Part shown: positions 5,999 to 64,000 of the stretch, piece by piece
Position numbering within the stretch: the first letter of the stretch is position 1
Layout: each line of letters begins with the position of its first letter
Assembly (NCBI RefSeq): GCF_020097835.1
Contig: NZ_CP083666.1
Coordinates: forward strand, 2,914,001-2,978,000
Direction of reading: 5' to 3'
Origin: Haloprofundus halobius
GTDB taxonomy: Archaea > Halobacteriota > Halobacteria > Halobacteriales > Haloferacaceae
DNA: 64,000 bases
The notes under the pieces: model-generated
Told to the model about the DNA's origin: nothing
Database searches by the model: none
Seen by the model: only the letters and a program-made list of their open reading frames with translations
Made by a program: the position numbers and the translations under genes

Positions 5999-6168
5999 GG
6001 ACGACGCTGCGCACCACGGCGAGTAAAACGCCTCGGTCGGTGAGCACGACTGGAGGCGACGCCGACCCGCCGCCGCCCGGCGAGCGATCACCTCACCTGT
6101 TCGCCGCCAAACACGACGACGGGACCGGAACCGGGCGCTTATGTGGGTTTCACGCCAACCATGGTATC

Positions 6169-7356
6169 GTGTCGACCCTCCTCCTCGTCGCCGGCGTTCT
6201 CGTCGCTGTCTTCGTCGGGGTCAACGTCGGCGGTTCCAACACCGGCGTCGCGTTCGGCCCCGCCGTCGGCAGCGGTGCGGTGTCGAAACTCATAGCGGGC
6301 GCGTTGATGTCCGTGTTCGCGCTCCTCGGCGGATGGACCGTCGGGCGGCGCGTCGTCGATACCCTCGGCAGCGACATCGTCACCGGCGACCCGTTCACGC
6401 TCTCGGTGAGCATCGCGATGCTGTTCTTCGTCGGCCTCGCGCTGTTCGTCTCGAACGTCTTCGGCGTCCCCGCGTCGACGTCGATGACCGCCGTCGGCGC
6501 TATCGCCGGGTTCGGCCTCGCCTCGAACCGCCTCAACACGGGGGTCGTCCTCGAAATCGTCTCGTGGTGGTTCGTCGCACCCATCGTCGGCTTCTGGGTC
6601 AGCGCCGTCGTCGGCCGCTACGCGTACGACGAAATCGCGGCCCGCATCGCCGTCAGACAGTCCGAGGGTCCGCTGCTCCAGTTCACGCCCCGCCCCGCGT
6701 TGGGACCGAACACGACGATGCGCGAACTCGGCGGGACGGTGCTCGTCGTCGCCATCGCGTGTTACATGGCGTTCTCGGCGGGGGCGTCGAACGTCGCCAA
6801 CGCCGTCGCCCCACTCGTCGGCAACGGTGCGCTGACGATGAATCAGGGAATCCTGCTGGCGGCCGGTTCCATCGGTCTCGGCGCGCTCACGCTCGCGCGG
6901 CGGACGCTCGACACCGTCGGCAACGACCTCACCGACCTCCCGCTGGCGGCGGCGCTGGTCGTCGCGACGGTGAGCGCGAGTCTCGTGACCGTGCTGTCGG
7001 CGCTCGGCGTCCCGGCGAGTTTCGTCGTCATCGCCACGATGAGCATCGTCGGTCTCGGCTGGGGCCGCGCGACCCGCGCCGAGGGAACGACGCTTCCGGG
7101 TACCGCCGCCGGGGGTGTCGGCGCGCCCGCGGCGACCGGTTCAACGGAGACGTCCGCGCACTCGGCGGCCGCGACCGGGTTCGGCACCGCCGGCGAACTG
7201 ACCGAGGAACCGCCGCTCGCGCCGACGGAGACGGCCGCGACGGCGGAACTGTATCGTCCGGCGACGACGGCTCGAATCGTCGTCCTGCAGAATCTCGTTC
7301 CGGCGTTCGCCACCGTCGCCGCCTACGCCGTCTTCCGGTTCGTCCCGTTCGTCTGA
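6169..7356 (+). CDS. PiT-family inorganic phosphate permease, copy 1
   Basis: A GTG start at 6169 gives VSTLLLVAGVLVAVFVGVN and 395 residues; it matches the GTG start of the paralogue at 7527. The family signature occurs in both halves: [19 protein letters not shown] near residue 17 and [18 protein letters not shown] near residue 200, the latter a variant of the classical GANDVANA. About ten membrane segments are visible, with a Thr/Ala-rich cytoplasmic insertion (about residues 305-365) before the last one. PiT carriers import phosphate with a cation. It is followed 170 bp later by a close paralogue. Confidence 0.92.
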   Translation: MSTLLLVAGVLVAVFVGVNVGGSNTGVAFGPAVGSGAVSKLIAGALMSVFALLGGWTVGRRVVDTLGSDIVTGDPFTLSVSIAMLFFVGLALFVSNVFGVPASTSMTAVGAIAGFGLASNRLNTGVVLEIVSWWFVAPIVGFWVSAVVGRYAYDEIAARIAVRQSEGPLLQFTPRPALGPNTTMRELGGTVLVVAIACYMAFSAGASNVANAVAPLVGNGALTMNQGILLAAGSIGLGALTLARRTLDTVGNDLTDLPLAAALVVATVSASLVTVLSALGVPASFVVIATMSIVGLGWGRATRAEGTTLPGTAAGGVGAPAATGSTETSAHSAAATGFGTAGELTEEPPLAPTETAATAELYRPATTARIVVLQNLVPAFATVAAYAVFRFVPFV

Positions 7357-7526
7357 GCTGTCGCCGATTCCGGACGGTCCGCGACACGACCGAAGCCGTG
7401 GCCGAGCACGCCGGTATCTGCGCTCGGACGGACGGCCGAACGGGGGCCAACCGCCCGGCTGAAGTGGAATCGACCGCCCGGCTGAATGCGGGTGGCTTAA
7501 CATCGGGACCGTTCTACGGCTGTCAC

Positions 7527-8666
7527 GTGGTAGACGCTCTGTTGGTCGTCGGTCTTCTGGTCGCCGTCTTCGTCGGGTTCAACATCGGCGGCTCTTCCAC
7601 CGGCGTCGCGTTCGGTCCCGCCGTCGGCAGCGGTGTCGTGAGCAAACTCGCCGCCGCGGCGCTGATGAGCGGCTTCGCACTCCTCGGCGGCTGGACCGCC
7701 GGCCGCGAGGTGATCAAGACGATGGGCGGCGAAATCGTCCCGCAGAGCCAGTTCACCCTCGCCGCCAGCGTCGCCGTGCTGCTGTTCGTCGGCCTCGCGC
7801 TCCTCGTGTCGAACACGTTCGGCGTTCCGGCCTCCACGTCGATGACGGCGGTCGGCGCAATCGCCGGACTCGGCGTCGCCACGGGGACGCTCAACGAGAG
7901 TGCGATGCTCGAAATCGTCTCGTGGTGGATCGTCGCGCCCATCCTCGCCTTCTGGGTCTGCGCGGTCGTCGGTCGGTACGTGTACCCGTACCTCGACGCG
8001 CGCTTCGCCATCGACCGAACCGAGGGGCCGCTCTTGGCGTTCGACCCCTTGCCGCGCCTCGGCGAGGGGACGACGCGACAGGAGTTTGGCGGGACGGTGT
8101 TGGTCGTCGTCATCGCCTGCTACATGGCGTTCTCGGCGGGGGCGTCGAACGTCGCCAACGCCGTCGCGCCGTTGGTCGGCAACGGCGCGGTGTCGCTCGA
8201 AGGTGGTATCCTGGTGGCGGCGGGAGCCATCGGCCTCGGCGCGTTCACCATCGCGCGGCGGACGCTCGACACCGTCGGCAACGACCTCACCGACCTCCCG
8301 ATTCTCGCGGCGCTCGTCGTCGAAGTCGTCAGCGCGACGCTCATCGCGGTGTTGTCAGCGTTGGGTATCCCGGCGAGTCTCGCGGTCAGCGCGACGATGA
8401 GCATCGTCGGTCTCGGCTGGGGTCGGGCGACGCGGACGGTGACGCTCGGACAGGCCGTCCGCGGTGAGGGACCGAACGTCTCGGTGAACGCGCTCGCGGC
8501 CGAGCGACGAGAGACGGTCCCCCGCGTCGGCGACGCGGACGACGAACTCACGGCGAACGACCTGTTCGACCCGGGGACGACGGGTCGCGTCATCTTCTTC
8601 TGGATTCTCACTCCCTCGCTGTCGGCGCTTGCGTCGTTTCTGCTCTTCCGGTTCGTGCCGCTGTGA
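7527..8666 (+). CDS. PiT-family inorganic phosphate permease, copy 2
   Basis: A GTG start at 7527 gives [20 protein letters not shown] and 379 residues. It is a clear tandem paralogue of the gene at 6169: [39 protein letters not shown] and [18 protein letters not shown] align without gaps. Several DNA stretches, for example around 8122-8168 and 8255-8300, are nearly identical to copy 1 while the loop before the last helix differs. That pattern fits duplication with later gene conversion. A TTTCTG-rich segment follows the stop. The predicted role is phosphate/cation symport; whether the two copies differ in affinity or expression is not visible. Confidence 0.92.
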
Positions 8667-34158: not shown

Positions 34159-34410
34159 TCACGCGAGATCCCTCCATCGGAACCACGCCCGCGCGACGGC
34201 GACCAGCACACCTGCCGCCGCGAGCAGTACCACCGCGCCGACGAGTCCGTACTCGCCGTCGACGAGAATCGCCGTCGGGTCGTAGTAGCGCGTCGGCGCG
34301 AGCGCACCGACCCACTCGAAGTCGGTGTTGGCCGTGACCGTCTCCAGGAGGAACAGGCCGAACACGACGCCCGTCTCGACGGCGAAGGAGAGGTCGTCGA
34401 CGGCGAACGT
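34159..34410 (-). pseudogene. C-terminal remnant of an ABC-2 type permease
   Basis: Reading from 34410 down gives FAVETGVVFGLFLLETVTAN, then DFEWVGALAPTRYYDPTAIL and a last helix (LVGAVVLLAAAGVLVAVARA) ending WFRWRDLA. The ALAPTRYYDPTAIL block and C-terminal helix followed by R/W..RRD are typical of haloarchaeal ABC-2 permeases. The frame begins directly after TGA (34411-34413) with no start and only about 84 codons remain, whereas the family has about 250-300. The missing 5' part has been replaced by the promoter of the gene at 34441. Confidence 0.65.
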
Positions 34411-57992: not shown

Positions 57993-58901
57993 TCACGCCT
58001 CCGGACGGTGTCGAACGGCGAGTATCGGAACCGGCACCGTCCGGAGCACCCGTTCAGTTACGCTCCCGAGCAGGTAGCGGCGGAGTCCGCTGCGCCCATG
58101 CGTTCCTATCGCGATCAGGTCGATGTCGTTCTCCGTCGCGTACGTCCCGATCTCCTCGTGGGGGACGCCGTGCACTACCCCGGATTCGGCGCGGACCCCC
58201 GCTTCGCGGGCGTGTTCGACGACGACGTCGGCGTCGGCTTGGCCGCGTTGGTCGAGTCGGCGGACGAACGCGCTGTCGACGCCTCCGGCGCTGAAGAGAC
58301 CACCCTCCTCGACGAGGTTCACCACCGAGAGCGCGTGCACCTCGGCGTCGAACGCCCGAGCGACCGCCACCGCGTGTTCGGCCGCGGCCTCGGCGCAGTC
58401 GCTCCCGTCGGTCGGGACGAGAATCCGTTCGTACGCCGCCGGTTCGGCGTCGTCCTCGTGGACGGCCATCACCGGACAGTCGGCTAGGCGGACGACGCGC
58501 TCGGCGACGCTCCCGAGCAGATAGCGCTGGAGGCCGGTCCGTCCGTGCGTTCCCATCACGACCAGATCGACGCGTTTCTCGTCGACGTAGGAGAGAATCG
58601 CCTCGTAGGGGGCACCCACCTGTAGCTCAGTCTCGACGCGCACCATCTGCGCACCGCCGCCGCCCACCAGTTCGTCGGCCCGTTCGGCGGCCGCTTCGAG
58701 GGTGCGTTGGCCGTACTGATAGAGCGTGTCCCGCCGCTGTACGTCGCCGTTCTCCTCCACCGGTGCGTCGTCCGGTTCGGAGTCGACGACGTACAGCACG
58801 TGCACCGCCGCGTCGGTCGCCTGCGCCATCAACAGGGCGTGTTCCAGCGCCGTCGCCGCCGCTTCGCTGCCGTCGGTCGGAACCAGTATCGTATCGTACA
58901 C
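57993..58901 (-). CDS. Tandem universal stress (Usp) protein
   Basis: I place the start at GTG 58901 (product begins YDTILVPTDGSEAAATALEH after the initiator; 302 residues), as the frame upstream is not conserved-looking. Two Usp domains are fused: each starts ILVPTDGS and each has the ATP-binding loop, GTHGRTGLQRYLLGSVAERV in the first and GTHGRSGLRRYLLGSVTERV in the second (G-2x-G-9x-G-S/T type). Usp proteins bind ATP or AMP and act under stress. It is convergent with the preceding gene; a palindrome-like GATACGATAC sits at the start. Confidence 0.92.
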   Translation of the reverse strand: MYDTILVPTDGSEAAATALEHALLMAQATDAAVHVLYVVDSEPDDAPVEENGDVQRRDTLYQYGQRTLEAAAERADELVGGGGAQMVRVETELQVGAPYEAILSYVDEKRVDLVVMGTHGRTGLQRYLLGSVAERVVRLADCPVMAVHEDDAEPAAYERILVPTDGSDCAEAAAEHAVAVARAFDAEVHALSVVNLVEEGGLFSAGGVDSAFVRRLDQRGQADADVVVEHAREAGVRAESGVVHGVPHEEIGTYATENDIDLIAIGTHGRSGLRRYLLGSVTERVLRTVPVPILAVRHRPEA

Positions 58902-59026: not shown

Positions 59027-59377
59027 GTGCCTGACCACAACGACGACCACAACACCCGACTGTCCGCCGATGTCGACGACACACCGACGGTTCGCTGTAC
59101 GCGCTGTGACCGCACGTGGGACCTCGGCTACGAGTTAGACGAACTGAACGTCGGCAACCAGTCGTTCGAGCAGTTCGCGCTCGACCACCAGCGACACACC
59201 GGCCACTTCCCGGACGACGTGACGCCGTGGGTCGTGACGTGTCGGCGCTGCCCCGATGGCGAGCAGTTCCTCTCGGAGCGACCCGCCCGCCGGTGGGCGG
59301 AGACCCACGCGAGACACACCGGCCACGCCGTCTCGCTCGACTACGACGACGAGGAGTCGGTCGTCGAACAGAAGTGA
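59027..59377 (+). CDS. Small Cys/His-rich zinc-binding protein
   Basis: A GTG at 59027 gives 116 residues, with GGATAAAAG at 58994-59002 about 27 nt upstream, so a leaderless start is likely. Two Cys pairs (VRCTRCDRTW and VVTCRRCPDGEQ) and His residues (DHQRHTGHFPDDVTPW, THARHTGHAVSLDYD) repeat in a CxxC...HxxHTGH pattern twice, suggesting two small zinc-binding repeats. A 38-codon extension continues in frame after the TGA. Function unknown. Confidence 0.7.
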   Translation: MPDHNDDHNTRLSADVDDTPTVRCTRCDRTWDLGYELDELNVGNQSFEQFALDHQRHTGHFPDDVTPWVVTCRRCPDGEQFLSERPARRWAETHARHTGHAVSLDYDDEESVVEQK

Positions 59378-59494
59378 GACTCCGACGGCGACGTGACGAC
59401 GGCGCTGTACGACGACCTCGGCCACTACGTCAACGACGAGCAGATGCGCGCTGTCGACGAGATGGTCGAGAGAGTCGCGGAGTTCCCCCCGTAG
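59378..59494 (+). pseudogene. In-frame extension after the TGA of the zinc-binding gene
   Basis: The frame of the zinc-binding gene stays open for 38 codons after its TGA (59375-59377) and ends at TAG (59492-59494): DSDGDVTTALYDDLG then HYVNDEQMRAVDEMVERVAE and FPP. It has normal codon use and amphipathic helix character. A GTG at 59393 could start it alone (33 codons). The simplest reading is a former C-terminal tail cut off by a nonsense mutation. Confidence 0.4.
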
Positions 59495-59509
59495 CGCGGG
59501 CGGTCGCGG

Positions 59510-59950
59510 TCAGTCGCCGGTCTGCGCGGGAGGTTCGTCGAGCACCGACGGATCGACGGCTGCGTACCGCGCGAGCGCGTCGAAATGCTGCGCGCAGAAC
59601 GTCCCCCCGGACGTGATCCCCCGCGCAGGCTCGATCCGCAGGTGTTCGGCGACGAACGCCTCGGCGACCAGCGCGAGTCGCGCGTTCCCGTCCGCGAGTT
59701 CGTCGTCGGCGCGGGAGACCAGAAGCACCGCCGTCGTCACGTCGTAGATGAGGTTGGTGAGTTCCTTGGCGTGGTACTGCGCGTACTCTACGTCTTCGGT
59801 CGCGAGCGCCCCGAGCGCGGTCTGAAGCTCCTCGAACGACGCTTTCACGTCGACGACGACGCCCGCGAGCGCCGAGTGGTCGACGGCGAGCAACTCGCTG
59901 ACGAAGGGAACGTAGCTGTCACGGACGGGAACTCCGCCGAGAACCGGAAC
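59510..59950 (-). pseudogene. Start-less helical fragment
   Basis: About 147 codons, read directly after the stop of the frameshifted gene and in the same frame: VPVLGGVPVRDSYVPFVSEL then SALAGVVVDVKASFEELQTA, YAQYHAKELTNLIYDVTTAV and GGTFCAQHFDALARYAAVDP, ending QTGD. No ATG or GTG lies in the first 45 codons (only TTG at 59893). The helical pattern resembles the C-terminal domain of acyl-CoA dehydrogenase-type proteins, but I am not sure of that. It looks like the 3' remnant of a longer gene. Confidence 0.45.
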
Positions 59951-61205
59951 TCAGGGGCCGACCGTCAGCGGTTCGCGCAGTCGCCAGATGTCTGTCTCCG
60001 GTTCGAGCCGATGGGGCTCGGCCCCTCGTTCGGCGAGGATACCAGCGTGGTACAGCATCGCCTTCAGCTGGAAGACGGTCGGTGAGTGAAAGACGTTCCC
60101 GTCCCGCAGCGCTTCGACTCGGAGACTGCCCTCCCCGTCCAGCACTCGGCGTCGCGCCTCGTCGGTTCCGCGCACGAACAGTTCCACGGTGAACGTCGGG
60201 TGCAGGACGTGCAGCCACTCGACGAGGTCGACGAGCGACGGGTCGCTGATACCGTCGTCGTGCATGGTCTGCAGTTCCTCGACCAGCAGTTGGGTCGCCG
60301 GGTACGCCCAGACGACGCGTCTGGTCATCAACCCCCCACTCGGGAGCGAGGTCGCAGAACCGCTTTCGAGACCGTCGCCAGTTGTCGAACGTCGCGAGCC
60401 CGGCGTCGACCGAGTCGTAGCGATGCAGCGCGAACCGAACCACCTCCTCGCCGAGCGGCGTGAGTTCGGTTCGGTCGGGGTGTTCCTCTATCAGCCCGAG
60501 AAACGCCGCCCCGCGCCGGGCGTCGGCCGTCGCCCCGACGACGCGCTCGGCGAGTACCTCGTCGGTGTCGTCGTTGTGGTACAGCGCGAGCGGGACGCCG
60601 AGATAGTTCTTCGGGTGGTTCAGGCCGAACGACGTGTCGGCGACACCCTGCGACGTGGCCTGGAATCGGATGGCCGTCGCGTCGTCGGACGTTCGGTTGC
60701 CGACGACGCGCGGGACCTCCAAAGGCTCGACCGCTCCGGCTGCGTCGACACCGAGGACGCCGACGTTGAGTTCACGGGCGAGCGTCCGCACAGACTGCGA
60801 AATCGCCCGAGCCGGTGCCGCGACGTACGCAGCGTTGGCCTCGTTGAGGCGGTCGTACGCCTGGACGACCCCGCGTTCGACGTCGACGCTCCCCGATTCG
60901 GTATACCCTTTCGCTTCGACGGCGATTAAGGGCGGTTGGTCCCCGAAGCGCTCGACAGCGAGTAGTTCTGACTCCAAGAGTCGAACGCCGACGAGGTCCG
61001 GGTAGCCTGACCCCACGCGAACGTGGTTGAACGGTGCGAGTCGTTCGCGTACCGTCGACGAAATCGGTTGACCCGGGAGCCACTCGTCCATCGCGAACTG
61101 CGTGTCCACGACCGAGTAGGTCTCTGGCTGGTTCGGGTCGGGAAAGAGACGACGCTTGGTGTGAGCGAGAACCTCCGGTTCCGAAAGCGATGCCGCGCTG
61201 GCCAT
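59951..61205 (-). pseudogene. Frameshifted PD-(D/E)XK nuclease-like gene
   Basis: The gene starts MASAASLSEPEVLAHTKRRL at 61205. Residues about 60-100 read VGSGYPDLVGVRLLESELLA then PPLIAVEAKGY, matching PD...ExK of the restriction-endonuclease-like superfamily. A helical/winged part follows to ATFDNWRRSRKRFCDLAPEWG (near 60340), where frame 1 loses sense; the continuation MTRRVVWAYPATQLLVEELQ to REPLTVGP lies one frame over and ends at 59951. Removing one G from a run of six (60332-60337) would rejoin both parts into about 418 residues. Real mutation, slippage tract or sequencing error cannot be separated here. It lies beside an integrase. Confidence 0.65.
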
Positions 61206-61491
61206 GAGCTGTCGTCTCCCGTGGGGGGCATGAATTGATGTGGTTTCTCGTCGAAGATGTGGATTCTACCGGGCTAAACGGCCGAGTGCCGAGCGTCGAG
61301 ATGTCGATGTAGACGATGTTGGTCGATTGTCGATTTCGTTCCGTCGAAACGCCAAAAACGGACTCGAGGGGAGTGAGCGAAGCGAACGGACCCGACGGGG
61401 ATTGACCCAAGACGGTGACGACGTCGCCGGTTCCCCACTCCGATGCATGTCGAACCCGCGGCACCGCGGTCGAACGGTTCGTCGACCGACC
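61206..61491. other. Divergent gap between nuclease-like gene and integrase
   Basis: I see no tRNA, no obvious direct repeat and no convincing gene. It carries a GAGGGGAGTGAGCGAAGCGA segment (61370-61389), a type common in haloarchaeal spacers, and GCGGCACCGCGG (61459-61470). It must contain promoters for both flanking genes. Confidence 0.4.
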
Positions 61492-62508
61492 ATGACCACA
61501 CCACTCGAACCTATCGAACCGCACCGTGCCGCAGAACTCTACCTCGGTCAGCGCGAGACCGAAGTCGCCCGCAGTACGCTTCAGGCACATCGCTCTCGAC
61601 TGCGCTACTTCTGCCGCTGGTGTGATCAGGAAGGCATCGACAACATGAACGACCTGACCGGACGGAAACTCCACGAGTTCCGGCTCTGGCGGCGCGACGA
61701 CGGCGACCTGAACCCCGTCAGCGAGAAGACGCAGATGCAGACGATTCGCGTCTTCATTCGCTGGTGCGAGTCCATCGAAGCCGTCGAGAACGACCTCTCA
61801 ACGAAGGTCCAGTCGCCGAGCCTCGCAACAGCGGACGACGCACGCGATGTGATGCTCACAGCCGAACGGGCGACGAAAGTTCTCGCCTATCTCGAGAAGT
61901 ATCAGTACGCGTCTATCGAACACGTTACCCTCGCTCTGCTCTGGCACACGATGATGCGTCGAGGGTCAGTACGCGCGCTCGACTTGGACGACTACCACTC
62001 GGACGAGCAGTACGTCGAGGTTGTCCATCGCCCAGAGACGGAGACTCCGCTGAAGAACAAGGAACGCGGCGAGCGGCTCGTCGCTCTCTCGGAACAGTTG
62101 TGCGATCTATTGGACGACTGGATCGAACGCCAACGACCGAACGTAGAAGACGAGTACGAACGAGAGCCTCTACTGGCCACAGCCAATGGTCGAATTGGGG
62201 CTAGCACTATCGCGAAGTACGTCTACCGGACTACTCGACCCTGCGTCTATACAGGTAAGTGTCCGCACGACCGTGATGTCGAGACGTGCGACGGAGCGAG
62301 CGACGAACTCCCGTCAAAGTGCCCAACCAGTGTCTCTCCGCATGCTATCCGTCGGGGTTCGATTACGCACTCCTTGGAAGAAGGAACTCCTGACAAGGTG
62401 ATTAGCGATCGAGCGAACGTGAGCCAAGAAATCCTCGACAAGCACTACGACCGGCGTGACGAACGTACGAAGATGGAACAGCGACGGGCGTATATTACTG
62501 ATATGTAG
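61492..62508 (+). CDS. Tyrosine-family site-specific recombinase (integrase)
   Basis: The start MTTPLEPIEPHRAAELYLGQ gives 338 residues. Residues 1-105 form the SAM-like core-binding domain (RSTLQAHRSRLRYFCRWCDQ). The catalytic domain shows Arg in LLWHTMMRRGSVRALDLDDY, a Lys in RPETETPLKNKERGERLVAL, HxxR in VSPHAIRRGSITHSLEEGT and the nucleophile Tyr in LDKHYDRRDERTKMEQRR. A Cys-rich insertion (CVYTGKCPHDRDVETCDGAS) near the catalytic site is usual in haloarchaeal integrases. It marks the edge of a more AT-rich stretch and probably moved or moves a genomic island. Confidence 0.93.
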   Translation: MTTPLEPIEPHRAAELYLGQRETEVARSTLQAHRSRLRYFCRWCDQEGIDNMNDLTGRKLHEFRLWRRDDGDLNPVSEKTQMQTIRVFIRWCESIEAVENDLSTKVQSPSLATADDARDVMLTAERATKVLAYLEKYQYASIEHVTLALLWHTMMRRGSVRALDLDDYHSDEQYVEVVHRPETETPLKNKERGERLVALSEQLCDLLDDWIERQRPNVEDEYEREPLLATANGRIGASTIAKYVYRTTRPCVYTGKCPHDRDVETCDGASDELPSKCPTSVSPHAIRRGSITHSLEEGTPDKVISDRANVSQEILDKHYDRRDERTKMEQRRAYITDM

Positions 62509-62815
62509 CGACTCTCTAATCATATTGAAACCTTGACAGTGTCACTACAGAATGTTCCAAGTGCGCGTTATTGAGGAGTCATAGGGAGGGTAAAACGCGC
62601 TCTCGCATCTCAGTGCGTCGATCGGCGCGCTGGTTACAACCGAAATCAGAAGTTCGACAAGGCGACTGTATCAGTAGCTCCTTTTAGCCATACTACCCTA
62701 AAAACGAAATCAGAATGCGTATCGAAAACTGGTCAGACTTGGGACGAGCATCCGAGATCATTGAAAATGATTTTCGGAGCGACATCCTTATGTCATCTAA
62801 ATTTGAGTTACTTAT
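62509..62815. other. AT-rich gap after the integrase
   Basis: About 300 bp with no convincing gene. AT-richer than the rest of the window (for example CCTTTTAGCCATACTACCCT at 62678-62697). CCTTATGTC at 62786-62794 is a TATA candidate about 26 nt before the next ATG. No attachment-site repeat could be identified inside the window. Confidence 0.45.
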
Positions 62816-64000
62816 ATGCCAGTATGCGTCTCGTGCACTGCAAGTCTCCCATACGGAATAAGCCACTGTCGCGAGTGCAGACATGAAACTGGTTGGGTCA
62901 GCTATCCTGAAACTGGGGATTGGTGGGAACAAGATACTGCGGAACAAATCGCCGAAGAAGCCGAGTCTAGTCTCGTTACCTACGAACGACTGACGACTCA
63001 AAAGAGTGGGTTCTTCACCCGATTATTCTCTTTGGAGCCACTCGAGAAGCATCGAACATACGATAGACCAATCATCGGGTATCTCCACCCCGGAGAGATC
63101 CTTCACTACATCTTTACAGGAAATCAAAATACGGTCATCAGAGATCGCCGGGAGTCGCGGTTTATCAGAGAAGAAAATAGCAGTACGGAACTACTTACTA
63201 GTCGTAGTTATAATCCACTGGTGCTCGTCACGAACAACCGAATTCTTTCAATAAGCACTGTTGAAGGGGGTGATTCGCTTGTCGAAGCTCCAATCGAGCG
63301 GATAGTGGATATTGAGATTCAAAGTAACTACGAACCGGACTTCGAGAACGAAGAATTTGTTCACACCTATCTGCTCAGAGTAGCAACTGTCGATTCGAAG
63401 TTTGAATTTCACATTGATACGAACCACGACGAATCTGAACTCAATCGGGCAGTTCGGCTTATCTCTTCTTTAGCAGTTACCTCAGACGAGGTCGGTCCTC
63501 TGTCGGAGCTCAGTGCTGGGACAGATAAGGTAAACACAGATACCACTACTCAGGCGACTGAATCGTCAGTAATCGAAAGGGAGGAAATAGAAGCAGTTCG
63601 CCACAGTAGAGACAGTATTGATTGGGGGGAAGTGCTCCAAACAGGTATAGAAGTGGGCGTGAAATCAGTCTCCGTTGCGAAGTATGCGCCGTACTCAACA
63701 CCACTCTTGGTTGGTGGTGCATCGCTGGGAGGTGCATTATTGAATGCTCATGGTCAGGTTACTGGGAAAAGTCGATCTGTTGATCCTGATGTCCTGATGG
63801 AGAGAGGGCTTAGTGGAGCAGATTTTGCAGAGCAGTATGAGATACCAGGTATTCAGGAGAAGCAGTTTGGTGGTACAGTAGGTGCCTCGCGTTATATCGC
63901 AGAGCAACTTACTCCAGAAAAGTACAACCACTGGGTTCTTCGAACGAATCCTGAGACAATCATAAAAGGTGCGAAAGCTGGATCTAATCTTGCAAGTCAC
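62816..64000 (+). CDS. Zinc-ribbon plus PH-like protein, C-terminus beyond the window
   Basis: The frame from ATG 62816 is open for 395 codons to the window end. It begins MPVCVSCTASLPYGISHCRE then CRH, a CxxC...CxxC zinc ribbon. Residues 85-220 look like a bacterial PH-type domain: HPGEILHYIFTG, NPLVLVTNNRILSISTVEGG and APIERIVDIEIQSN. An Asp/Thr-rich linker follows and a hydrophobic segment (TPLLVGGASLGGALLNAHG, about 300-318) that may enter a membrane. Codon use is clearly more AT-rich than in the rest of the window, pointing to recent acquisition next to the integrase. Function unknown. Confidence 0.75.
   Translation, partial: MPVCVSCTASLPYGISHCRECRHETGWVSYPETGDWWEQDTAEQIAEEAESSLVTYERLTTQKSGFFTRLFSLEPLEKHRTYDRPIIGYLHPGEILHYIFTGNQNTVIRDRRESRFIREENSSTELLTSRSYNPLVLVTNNRILSISTVEGGDSLVEAPIERIVDIEIQSNYEPDFENEEFVHTYLLRVATVDSKFEFHIDTNHDESELNRAVRLISSLAVTSDEVGPLSELSAGTDKVNTDTTTQATESSVIEREEIEAVRHSRDSIDWGEVLQTGIEVGVKSVSVAKYAPYSTPLLVGGASLGGALLNAHGQVTGKSRSVDPDVLMERGLSGADFAEQYEIPGIQEKQFGGTVGASRYIAEQLTPEKYNHWVLRTNPETIIKGAKAGSNLASH

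What the first reader, a model, noticed from the sequence alone, without database searches (positions are those of the whole stretch)
59951..61205. Nuclease-like gene beside an integrase broken at a run of six G
A gene with PD...ExK motifs and a helical C-terminal part loses its frame at 60332-60337 (CCCCCC on the + strand) and regains it in the next frame; one base fewer restores WGL-MTRRVVWAYPATQLL. Homopolymer slippage could switch expression on and off, which is attractive for a restriction-type defence protein, but simple inactivation or an assembly error would look the same.
Basis: partly seen in the sequence, partly recalled or inferred. Interest (0 to 1): 0.55.

Follow-up and report, generated by a model that had tools for sequence, protein, structure and literature searches.

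The report
Freshly broken haloarchaeal nuclease gene
A salt-loving archaeon carries a gene for a likely DNA-cutting enzyme of a widespread but unnamed family, knocked out of frame by one base in this genome; it looks like an ordinary recent gene loss (or a sequencing slip), not an on/off switch.

Summary
On the minus strand, 61205-60339 encodes the first 289 residues of a ~417-residue protein; the frame shifts at a G6 run (60337-60332) and the rest lies in the next frame (60331-59951). Single-frame relatives exist in two congeners and across Halobacteria (234 of 392 genomes match). At the homologous place 167 of 176 loci read through in one frame; the six broken there are all this same locus. 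The run varies and is never out of frame elsewhere, so it is no conserved switch. G6 is common here (15 runs, none longer). Both sides are still constrained (dN/dS about 0.16 against G004), so the break is very recent or a one-base sequence error; I cannot separate these. Split or remnant copies occur in 11 of 49 matching genomes of the family, of different kinds. The integrase heads a 71.3-kb element inserted in the neighbouring tRNA-Arg; the nuclease is a resident gene. The protein has invariant P-D...E-x-K...Q (79 of 79 sequences) and a C-terminal part whose model weakly resembles recognition domains of FokI, BspD6I and BpuJI. Most likely a stand-alone restriction-type nuclease, inactivated here.

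The parts
60339..61205 (-). first piece of the nuclease-type gene, codons 1-289, with P69-D70 (61001-60996), E97-x-K99 (60917-60909) and Q115
   Evidence: conserved residues
60332..60337 (-). run of six G (minus strand) where the frame is lost
59951..60331 (-). second piece of the same gene in the next frame, to its stop; second half of the C-terminal recognition-type domain
59513..59944 (-). probable headless remnant of an acyl-CoA dehydrogenase-like gene, directly downstream; relatives are C-terminal parts of ~600-residue frames; the name rests on Pfam hits below their cut-offs
59378..59516 (+). short stretch similar to the end of a gene (esterase-like by eye) that stands at this locus in congener G003
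61384..61399 (.). left copy of a 16-base direct repeat (other copy G000:C1:3046692-3046707, at the 3' end of tRNA-Arg): edge of the integrated element
61492..62508 (+). tyrosine integrase, first gene of the ~71.3-kb element; not linked to the nuclease by descent
59027..59377 (+). small CxxC protein, ancestral neighbour in the genus
57993..58901 (-). universal stress protein-like gene (name by eye), ancestral neighbour

Best explanation
It is a resident chromosomal gene of an unnamed, order-wide haloarchaeal family of single-chain nucleases: an N-terminal PD-(D/E)XK-type cutting part joined to a C-terminal winged-helix DNA-reading part. In intact relatives it probably acts alone as a restriction-type endonuclease, most simply a modification-dependent (type IV-like) one because no methyltransferase regularly travels with it (inferred). 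In this genome the copy has lost its frame at an ordinary G6 run very recently, so frame 1 ends in out-of-frame filler and the protein lacks about half of its reading domain: a fresh pseudogene, or else a single-base sequence error (see the first rival). Shown: the frame break, intact relatives, conservation of the motif, constraint on both sides, recurrent loss elsewhere, resident location. Inferred: nuclease activity, restriction role, loss of function.
For: P69, D70, E97, A98, K99, Q115 identical in 79 of 79 relatives' sequences (73 distinct). Break unique in its surroundings: the one gene split over two frames of 42 distinct genes compared with G004. Seven other G6/C6 runs lie in genes that stay in frame against G004. 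dN/dS window-G004 0.163 before and 0.162 after the run. Recurrent, different damage: by my reading of the rows, 11 of 49 matching genomes of the family hold split or remnant copies, against 1 of 116 for a neighbouring 6-phosphogluconate dehydrogenase-like gene (name by eye; Fisher 6e-6; 6e-5 as 9 of 47 against 1 of 115 without the most fragmented genomes). Different positions: aa ~49, ~88, ~221, an in-frame stop at ~137, and a 3' remnant next to a transposase-like gene in G003. Fold: VIA-align puts residues ~180-417 on FokI (Z 7.6, 172 aligned, 4.2 A), Nt.BspD6I (7.6, 167, 5.2 A) and BpuJI (6.9, 165, 3.9 A). The same reading domain is joined to an HNH nuclease in this genome (E 1.1e-14; HNH) and stands alone beside adenine and cytosine DNA methylases on a Salinibaculum plasmid.
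Against: The N-terminal fold could not be modelled (mean pLDDT 54 whole, 36 for the N-terminal part), so the PD-(D/E)XK core rests on motif and conservation. Fold Z values of 7-8 are within what the tool calls common for unrelated matches, the top row is a topoisomerase III (Z 7.9, 90 residues), and Foldseek finds nothing at E 0.001. Profile searches of both halves against PDB sequences find nothing convincing. No Pfam or PADLOC family, and only NCBIfam hits far below cut-off. Matches in ~60% of the genomes searched, in varied surroundings, would also suit a repair or housekeeping nuclease. The control gene in the loss comparison is nearly universal (117 of 119), so it shows dispensability rather than defence. 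After the run, dN/dS against G001 is 0.265 (G001-G004 0.267). Absence of further decay equally suits a sequencing error.
Confidence: 0.72

Rival explanations
1. One-base sequence or assembly error: the real gene is intact and the run was miscounted.
For: No other decay in the gene, dN/dS as in intact congeners on both sides; a homopolymer is the classical error place (recalled).
Against: None of the other 41 distinct genes compared with G004 is split over frames and 7 other G6/C6 runs in genes are in frame, so no general run-length error; the gene is also broken in other genomes, though some of those could be errors too.
Confidence: 0.35
2. Phase-variable gene: slippage at the G run switches a restriction protein on and off.
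For: Frame break exactly at the run; gene otherwise intact. Short homopolymer tracts have been argued to be a general inactivation device in prokaryotes, 18 archaeal genomes included (PMC2831843, passages read), but for poly(A)/poly(T) near gene starts.
Against: Run not conserved and in frame in all 167 loci other than the window's own that cover the place; 15 runs of this length in 64 kb; it sits at two thirds of the gene; other broken copies looked at differ in place. In the 10 papers shown of 470 for phase variation, haloarchaea, homopolymer (two of three terms), no title reports a haloarchaeal case.
Confidence: 0.04
3. Programmed +1 frameshift or transcriptional slippage makes the full protein from the sequence as it stands.
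For: The two frames overlap at a run of G, a usual kind of slip place (recalled).
Against: No relative that covers the place needs it (167 loci in one frame).
Confidence: 0.03
4. The protein is a DNA repair or genome-maintenance nuclease rather than a restriction enzyme.
For: Matches in about 60% of the order's genomes searched, no steady partner; beside a MrfA-like helicase and an RNase H-like gene in Halorubrum ezzemoulense and beside an RNase H-like gene in Halomontanus.
Against: Frequent independent loss; reading domain shared with an HNH nuclease and found beside DNA methylases; weak fold match to type IIS recognition domains.
Confidence: 0.25

Closest known systems
FokI, Nt.BspD6I and BpuJI (type IIS restriction/nicking enzymes): DNA-recognition domains
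   Same: model residues ~180-417 align over the recognition region; cutting part and reading part in one chain
   Different: order reversed against FokI (cutting part first here; FokI order recalled); fold match weak; no steady methyltransferase partner; no sequence match by profile
BrxA, DNA-binding protein of BREX
   Same: published as a two-HTH protein resembling BpuJI and FokI (PMC9240713, passages read), so possibly the same kind of reader
   Different: no direct comparison made here; no neighbour family recurs at these loci beyond 11 of 75
Mrr and other type IV REases of haloarchaea
   Same: would work as a single nuclease without a methyltransferase; Mrr is sporadic in Halobacteria (PMC6471742, passages read)
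   Different: no Pfam or PADLOC match to Mrr or another type IV family; far wider spread here (234 of 392 genomes)
HVO_A0006, PD-(D/E)XK protein of Haloferax volcanii
   Same: haloarchaeal PD-(D/E)XK protein tied to restriction-modification (PMC4389544, abstract and outline read)
   Different: fragment of a type IIG enzyme and rare among Halobacteria by its authors; no sequence comparison made here
HNH protein of 404 aa in the same genome (G000:C1:2994088-2995299, minus strand; L002 640-1851)
   Same: shares the reading domain (31% over query residues 192-401, E 1.1e-14)
   Different: cutting part is HNH at the C-terminal end (Pfam HNH 6.3e-8) and it lies inside the integrated element

Membership tests
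PD-(D/E)XK nuclease superfamily | acidic residue and ExK motif conserved | tested here: met
   P69 D70 E97 K99 (and Q115) identical in 79 of 79 relatives' sequences, 73 distinct; the family rule itself is recalled
PD-(D/E)XK nuclease superfamily | alpha-beta-beta-beta-alpha-beta core fold | tested here: inconclusive
   models of the N-terminal part too poor; no convincing profile hit in PDB
PD-(D/E)XK nuclease superfamily | metal-dependent DNA cleavage | not testable with these tools
   needs protein
type IIS restriction enzyme | FokI/BpuJI-type recognition domain | tested here: inconclusive
   VIA Z 6.8-7.6 over 165-176 residues for FokI, BspD6I and BpuJI chains but Foldseek not significant
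type IIS restriction enzyme | cognate methyltransferase next to it | tested here: not met
   no neighbour family recurs in more than 11 of 75 loci within four genes, and the most frequent is oxidoreductase-like by eye; neighbours that occur once were not all named; one plasmid copy has a DNA adenine methylase three genes away
type IV restriction enzyme | stands alone without a regular methyltransferase partner | tested here: met
   with the exception and the limit just named
type IV restriction enzyme | cuts only modified DNA | not testable with these tools
   needs assay
phase-variable (contingency) gene | unusually long repeat tract | tested here: not met
   G6, one of 15 runs of six in the window
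phase-variable (contingency) gene | tract kept in relatives with lengths in and out of frame | tested here: not met
   in frame in 167 of 167 loci that cover the place and are not the window's own locus
phase-variable (contingency) gene | mixed lengths within one population | not testable with these tools
   no reads

The most novel reading that the evidence does not exclude
The family is a new, order-wide haloarchaeal class of reader-plus-cutter nucleases in which one BrxA/FokI-type reading domain is exchanged between PD-(D/E)XK and HNH cutters and also stands alone, and which restricts viral DNA carrying 7-deazaguanines. Hints only: QueE/QueD-type genes lie within four genes of it in 4 of 75 loci (three genera; names and similarity); the HNH cousin sits in an element with a TGT-domain gene and a DpdJ-like helicase; a halovirus with about 30% of its G as dPreQ1 exists (PMC6884629, passages read). 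The copy in this genome could then have been lost when the incoming element brought its own system.
Probability: 0.06. Interest if true: 0.75.

Novelty: new member of a known kind. Interest (0 to 1): 0.33.

Why it matters
The break itself is ordinary. What is useful is the family: a nuclease-type protein with an invariant active-site signature, with a match in 234 of 392 haloarchaeal genomes searched, annotated as 'hypothetical protein' in the plasmid records looked at, repeatedly lost, and not named by Pfam, NCBIfam or PADLOC. If it is a stand-alone restriction enzyme it would be among the widespread defence genes of this order and would bear on which DNA can enter haloarchaea. It also warns that an integrase next door does not make a gene part of the mobile element.

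Tried and rejected
Rejected: nuclease carried by the integrated element. Congeners without the element have the gene at the same place beside tRNA-Arg. Rejected: the G run as a conserved switch. Rejected: a generally error-ridden assembly. Led nowhere: Pfam, NCBIfam, PADLOC, PHROGs (best PHROG E 0.024), PDB by sequence, viral contigs (no relative), N-terminal fold, Foldseek. BrxA is not among the 50 rows shown, which excludes nothing. Guess by eye that a 305-aa neighbour of the stand-alone domain in Salinibaculum (P0001) is TGT-like: no library supports it, dropped. Paper searches (accession search: no paper) and 96: none of the listed titles treats this family; most subscription papers are not held.

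Counting choices. One search counted run lengths by a motif that itself asks for the frame, so I replaced it (alignment, no such condition). loci overlap (several loci of one genome), hence 108 distinct segments of 167; they include a few relatives of the reading domain only. One search took only hits of 60% identity or more; its 45 rows hold 3 duplicates from overlapping stretches, and two queries hit twice because the window has tandem paralogues. In one search, 3 of 78 loci gave no target gene by my gene caller and were left out. The 11 of 49 is a classification by hand: G000, G003, G117, G159, G248, G396, G403, G409, G410, G412, G427; G403 and G409 are fragmented assemblies. In one search the 116 leave out one genome with paralogues only, and two partial matches (G403, G421) were counted as unbroken. 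The E of 3.6e-78 for the HNH protein is not independent, since its domain was in the profile; I use. Genome G002 shows no copy, but its contig ends near this locus, so absence there is uncertain.

Full report
What is there. On the minus strand the window holds a gene starting at ATG 61205. Codons 1-289 read in one frame to 60339; at the run of six G (60337-60332) the frame is lost, and the remaining ~127 codons lie in the next frame, ending at a stop at 59951-59953. The first frame runs on to 59919 as Arg-rich filler.

Is it broken? Yes, against its family. Relatives of 415-425 residues in one frame were found at 11 of 14 named genome loci; the other three (L011, L015, L018) are themselves broken. 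234 of 392 genomes searched in the order match; its row list, which is capped, shows largely full-length matches. A relative's protein finds the window copy only as two overlapping pieces in two frames. In a search of 294 genomes of the phylum, the 37 genomes with a match all belong to the same order.

Is the run special? No. The window has 15 runs of six G or C and none longer. Seven of the others lie in genes that are in frame with congener G004. Of 176 loci with a match, 167 cross the homologous place in one frame without a stop (108 distinct segments), 3 do not reach it, and the 6 broken there are all copies of this one locus. Run lengths 1, 2, 3, 4, 5 and 6 occur in 1, 1, 17, 53, 32 and 4 of the 108 segments. 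Other broken copies that I looked at are broken elsewhere in the gene.

Mutation or error? Open. dN/dS between the window copy and congeners is 0.149 (G001) and 0.163 (G004) before the run and 0.265 and 0.162 after it; between the two intact congeners it is 0.139 and 0.267. So little has decayed besides the frame. This fits a very recent mutation and equally a sequence error. Against a general error problem, no other of 42 distinct genes compared with G004 is split over frames, though one is truncated.

Recurrent loss. In 119 genomes of the family, 49 match; by my reading of the rows 38 are full length and 11 are split or remnants (list in Tried and rejected). A nearby 6-phosphogluconate dehydrogenase-like gene is split in one of 116. 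That control is nearly universal, so the contrast shows dispensability. In the window's genus of five species: two intact (G001, G004), two broken (the window; G003, where only the last ~50-70 residues remain beside a transposase-like gene), one without a match. Halogranum amylolyticum keeps the same locus with a copy broken at about residue 221. This is the behaviour of a dispensable gene, and differs from switching at one tract.

Surroundings. In G001 and G004 the order is membrane protein, UspA-like, CxxC protein, nuclease, tRNA-Arg(CCG), 196-aa protein (names partly by eye). In the window genome homology to that locus stops at about 61381-61408 and resumes at G000:C1:3046692, at the 3' end of tRNA-Arg. 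A 16-base repeat marks both edges. So a 71.3-kb element with its integrase at 61492-62508 sits in tRNA-Arg, and the nuclease is simply the next resident gene. On the other side the window has a probable headless remnant of an acyl-CoA dehydrogenase-like gene (59513-59944; ten of twelve genomes with a match include frames of about 600 residues or more besides the window's own; Pfam hits below cut-off) and a scrap of another gene (59378-59516). The place is worn, which suits loss.

What the protein is. No Pfam or PADLOC family matches it, and NCBIfam only far below cut-off; plasmid annotations call it hypothetical. P69-D70, E97-A-K99 and Q115 are identical in 79 of 79 relatives' sequences (73 distinct), distant ones near 40% identity included: the classical signature of a PD-(D/E)XK nuclease (family rule recalled). 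Its fold could not be confirmed. The C-terminal ~220 residues model better (pLDDT 70-88 in parts). VIA-align places them over the recognition region of Nt.BspD6I, FokI and BpuJI with Z 6.8-7.6 (PaqCI Z 6.6 but at 11 A); the top row is a topoisomerase III (Z 7.9) over 90 residues only, and single winged helices follow. The tool warns that Z of 7-8 can be chance, and Foldseek sees nothing; I treat it as a lead. It gains some weight from modularity: the same domain is joined to an HNH nuclease in an element protein of this genome and stands alone beside adenine and cytosine DNA methylases on a Salinibaculum plasmid. BrxA of BREX is published as resembling the same recognition domains (PMC9240713, passages).

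How it probably works. Since no methyltransferase or other partner recurs (75 loci), a type IV-like (modified DNA only) mode is simplest; an orphan type II mode protected by conserved haloarchaeal orphan methylases is possible; a repair role is the main rival. Surveys say type II REase genes are hard to identify by similarity and that haloarchaeal RM genes are patchy through transfer and loss (PMC10609329 and PMC6471742, passages), which this gene fits. In this genome the product would have the cutting part and half a reader, and is probably inactive.

Verdict. Observation confirmed; switch not supported; ordinary recent inactivation or a one-base error of a resident gene, in a family that deserves naming.

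Noticed in passing
window 61400-64000, continuing to G000:C1:3046691 (loci L082, L083, L113-L115): The 71.3-kb element in tRNA-Arg carries what looks like a defence island: UvrD-PDDEXK helicase-nuclease, DpdJ-like and Druantia E/MrfA-like helicases, a TGT/DUF5591 protein, a PbeA-like helicase beside an HATPase, HNH-repeat proteins.
   Followed up: partly
L002 640-1851 (-), G000:C1:2994088-2995299: 404-aa HNH protein whose N-terminal part is the same reading domain as the nuclease's C-terminal part: cutter exchange between nuclease classes.
   Followed up: partly
window 59378-59516 and 59513-59944: Scraps of an esterase-like gene (by eye) and of an acyl-CoA dehydrogenase-like gene between the CxxC protein and the nuclease.
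   Followed up: partly
window 34159-34365: A 68-aa frame matches only residues 218-287 of a 287-aa gene of congener G004: a truncated gene in the window.
   Followed up: no
L087, L127, L165, L188: QueD/QueE/QueC-type genes lie within four genes of the nuclease in 4 of 75 loci, directly downstream on the same strand in L087 (names).
   Followed up: no
L081 9139-9354 and 9436-10737: In congener G003 only the last ~50-70 residues of the nuclease remain, next to a transposase-like (TnpB-like by eye) gene.
   Followed up: partly
window 6040-7356 and 7398-8666: Tandem paralogues about 62% alike across species, both present in G004.
   Followed up: no
window 57993-58901; L080 7052-7495: UspA-like gene has 302 aa in the window and only 147 aa in G004: one half lost there or not called.
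   Followed up: no
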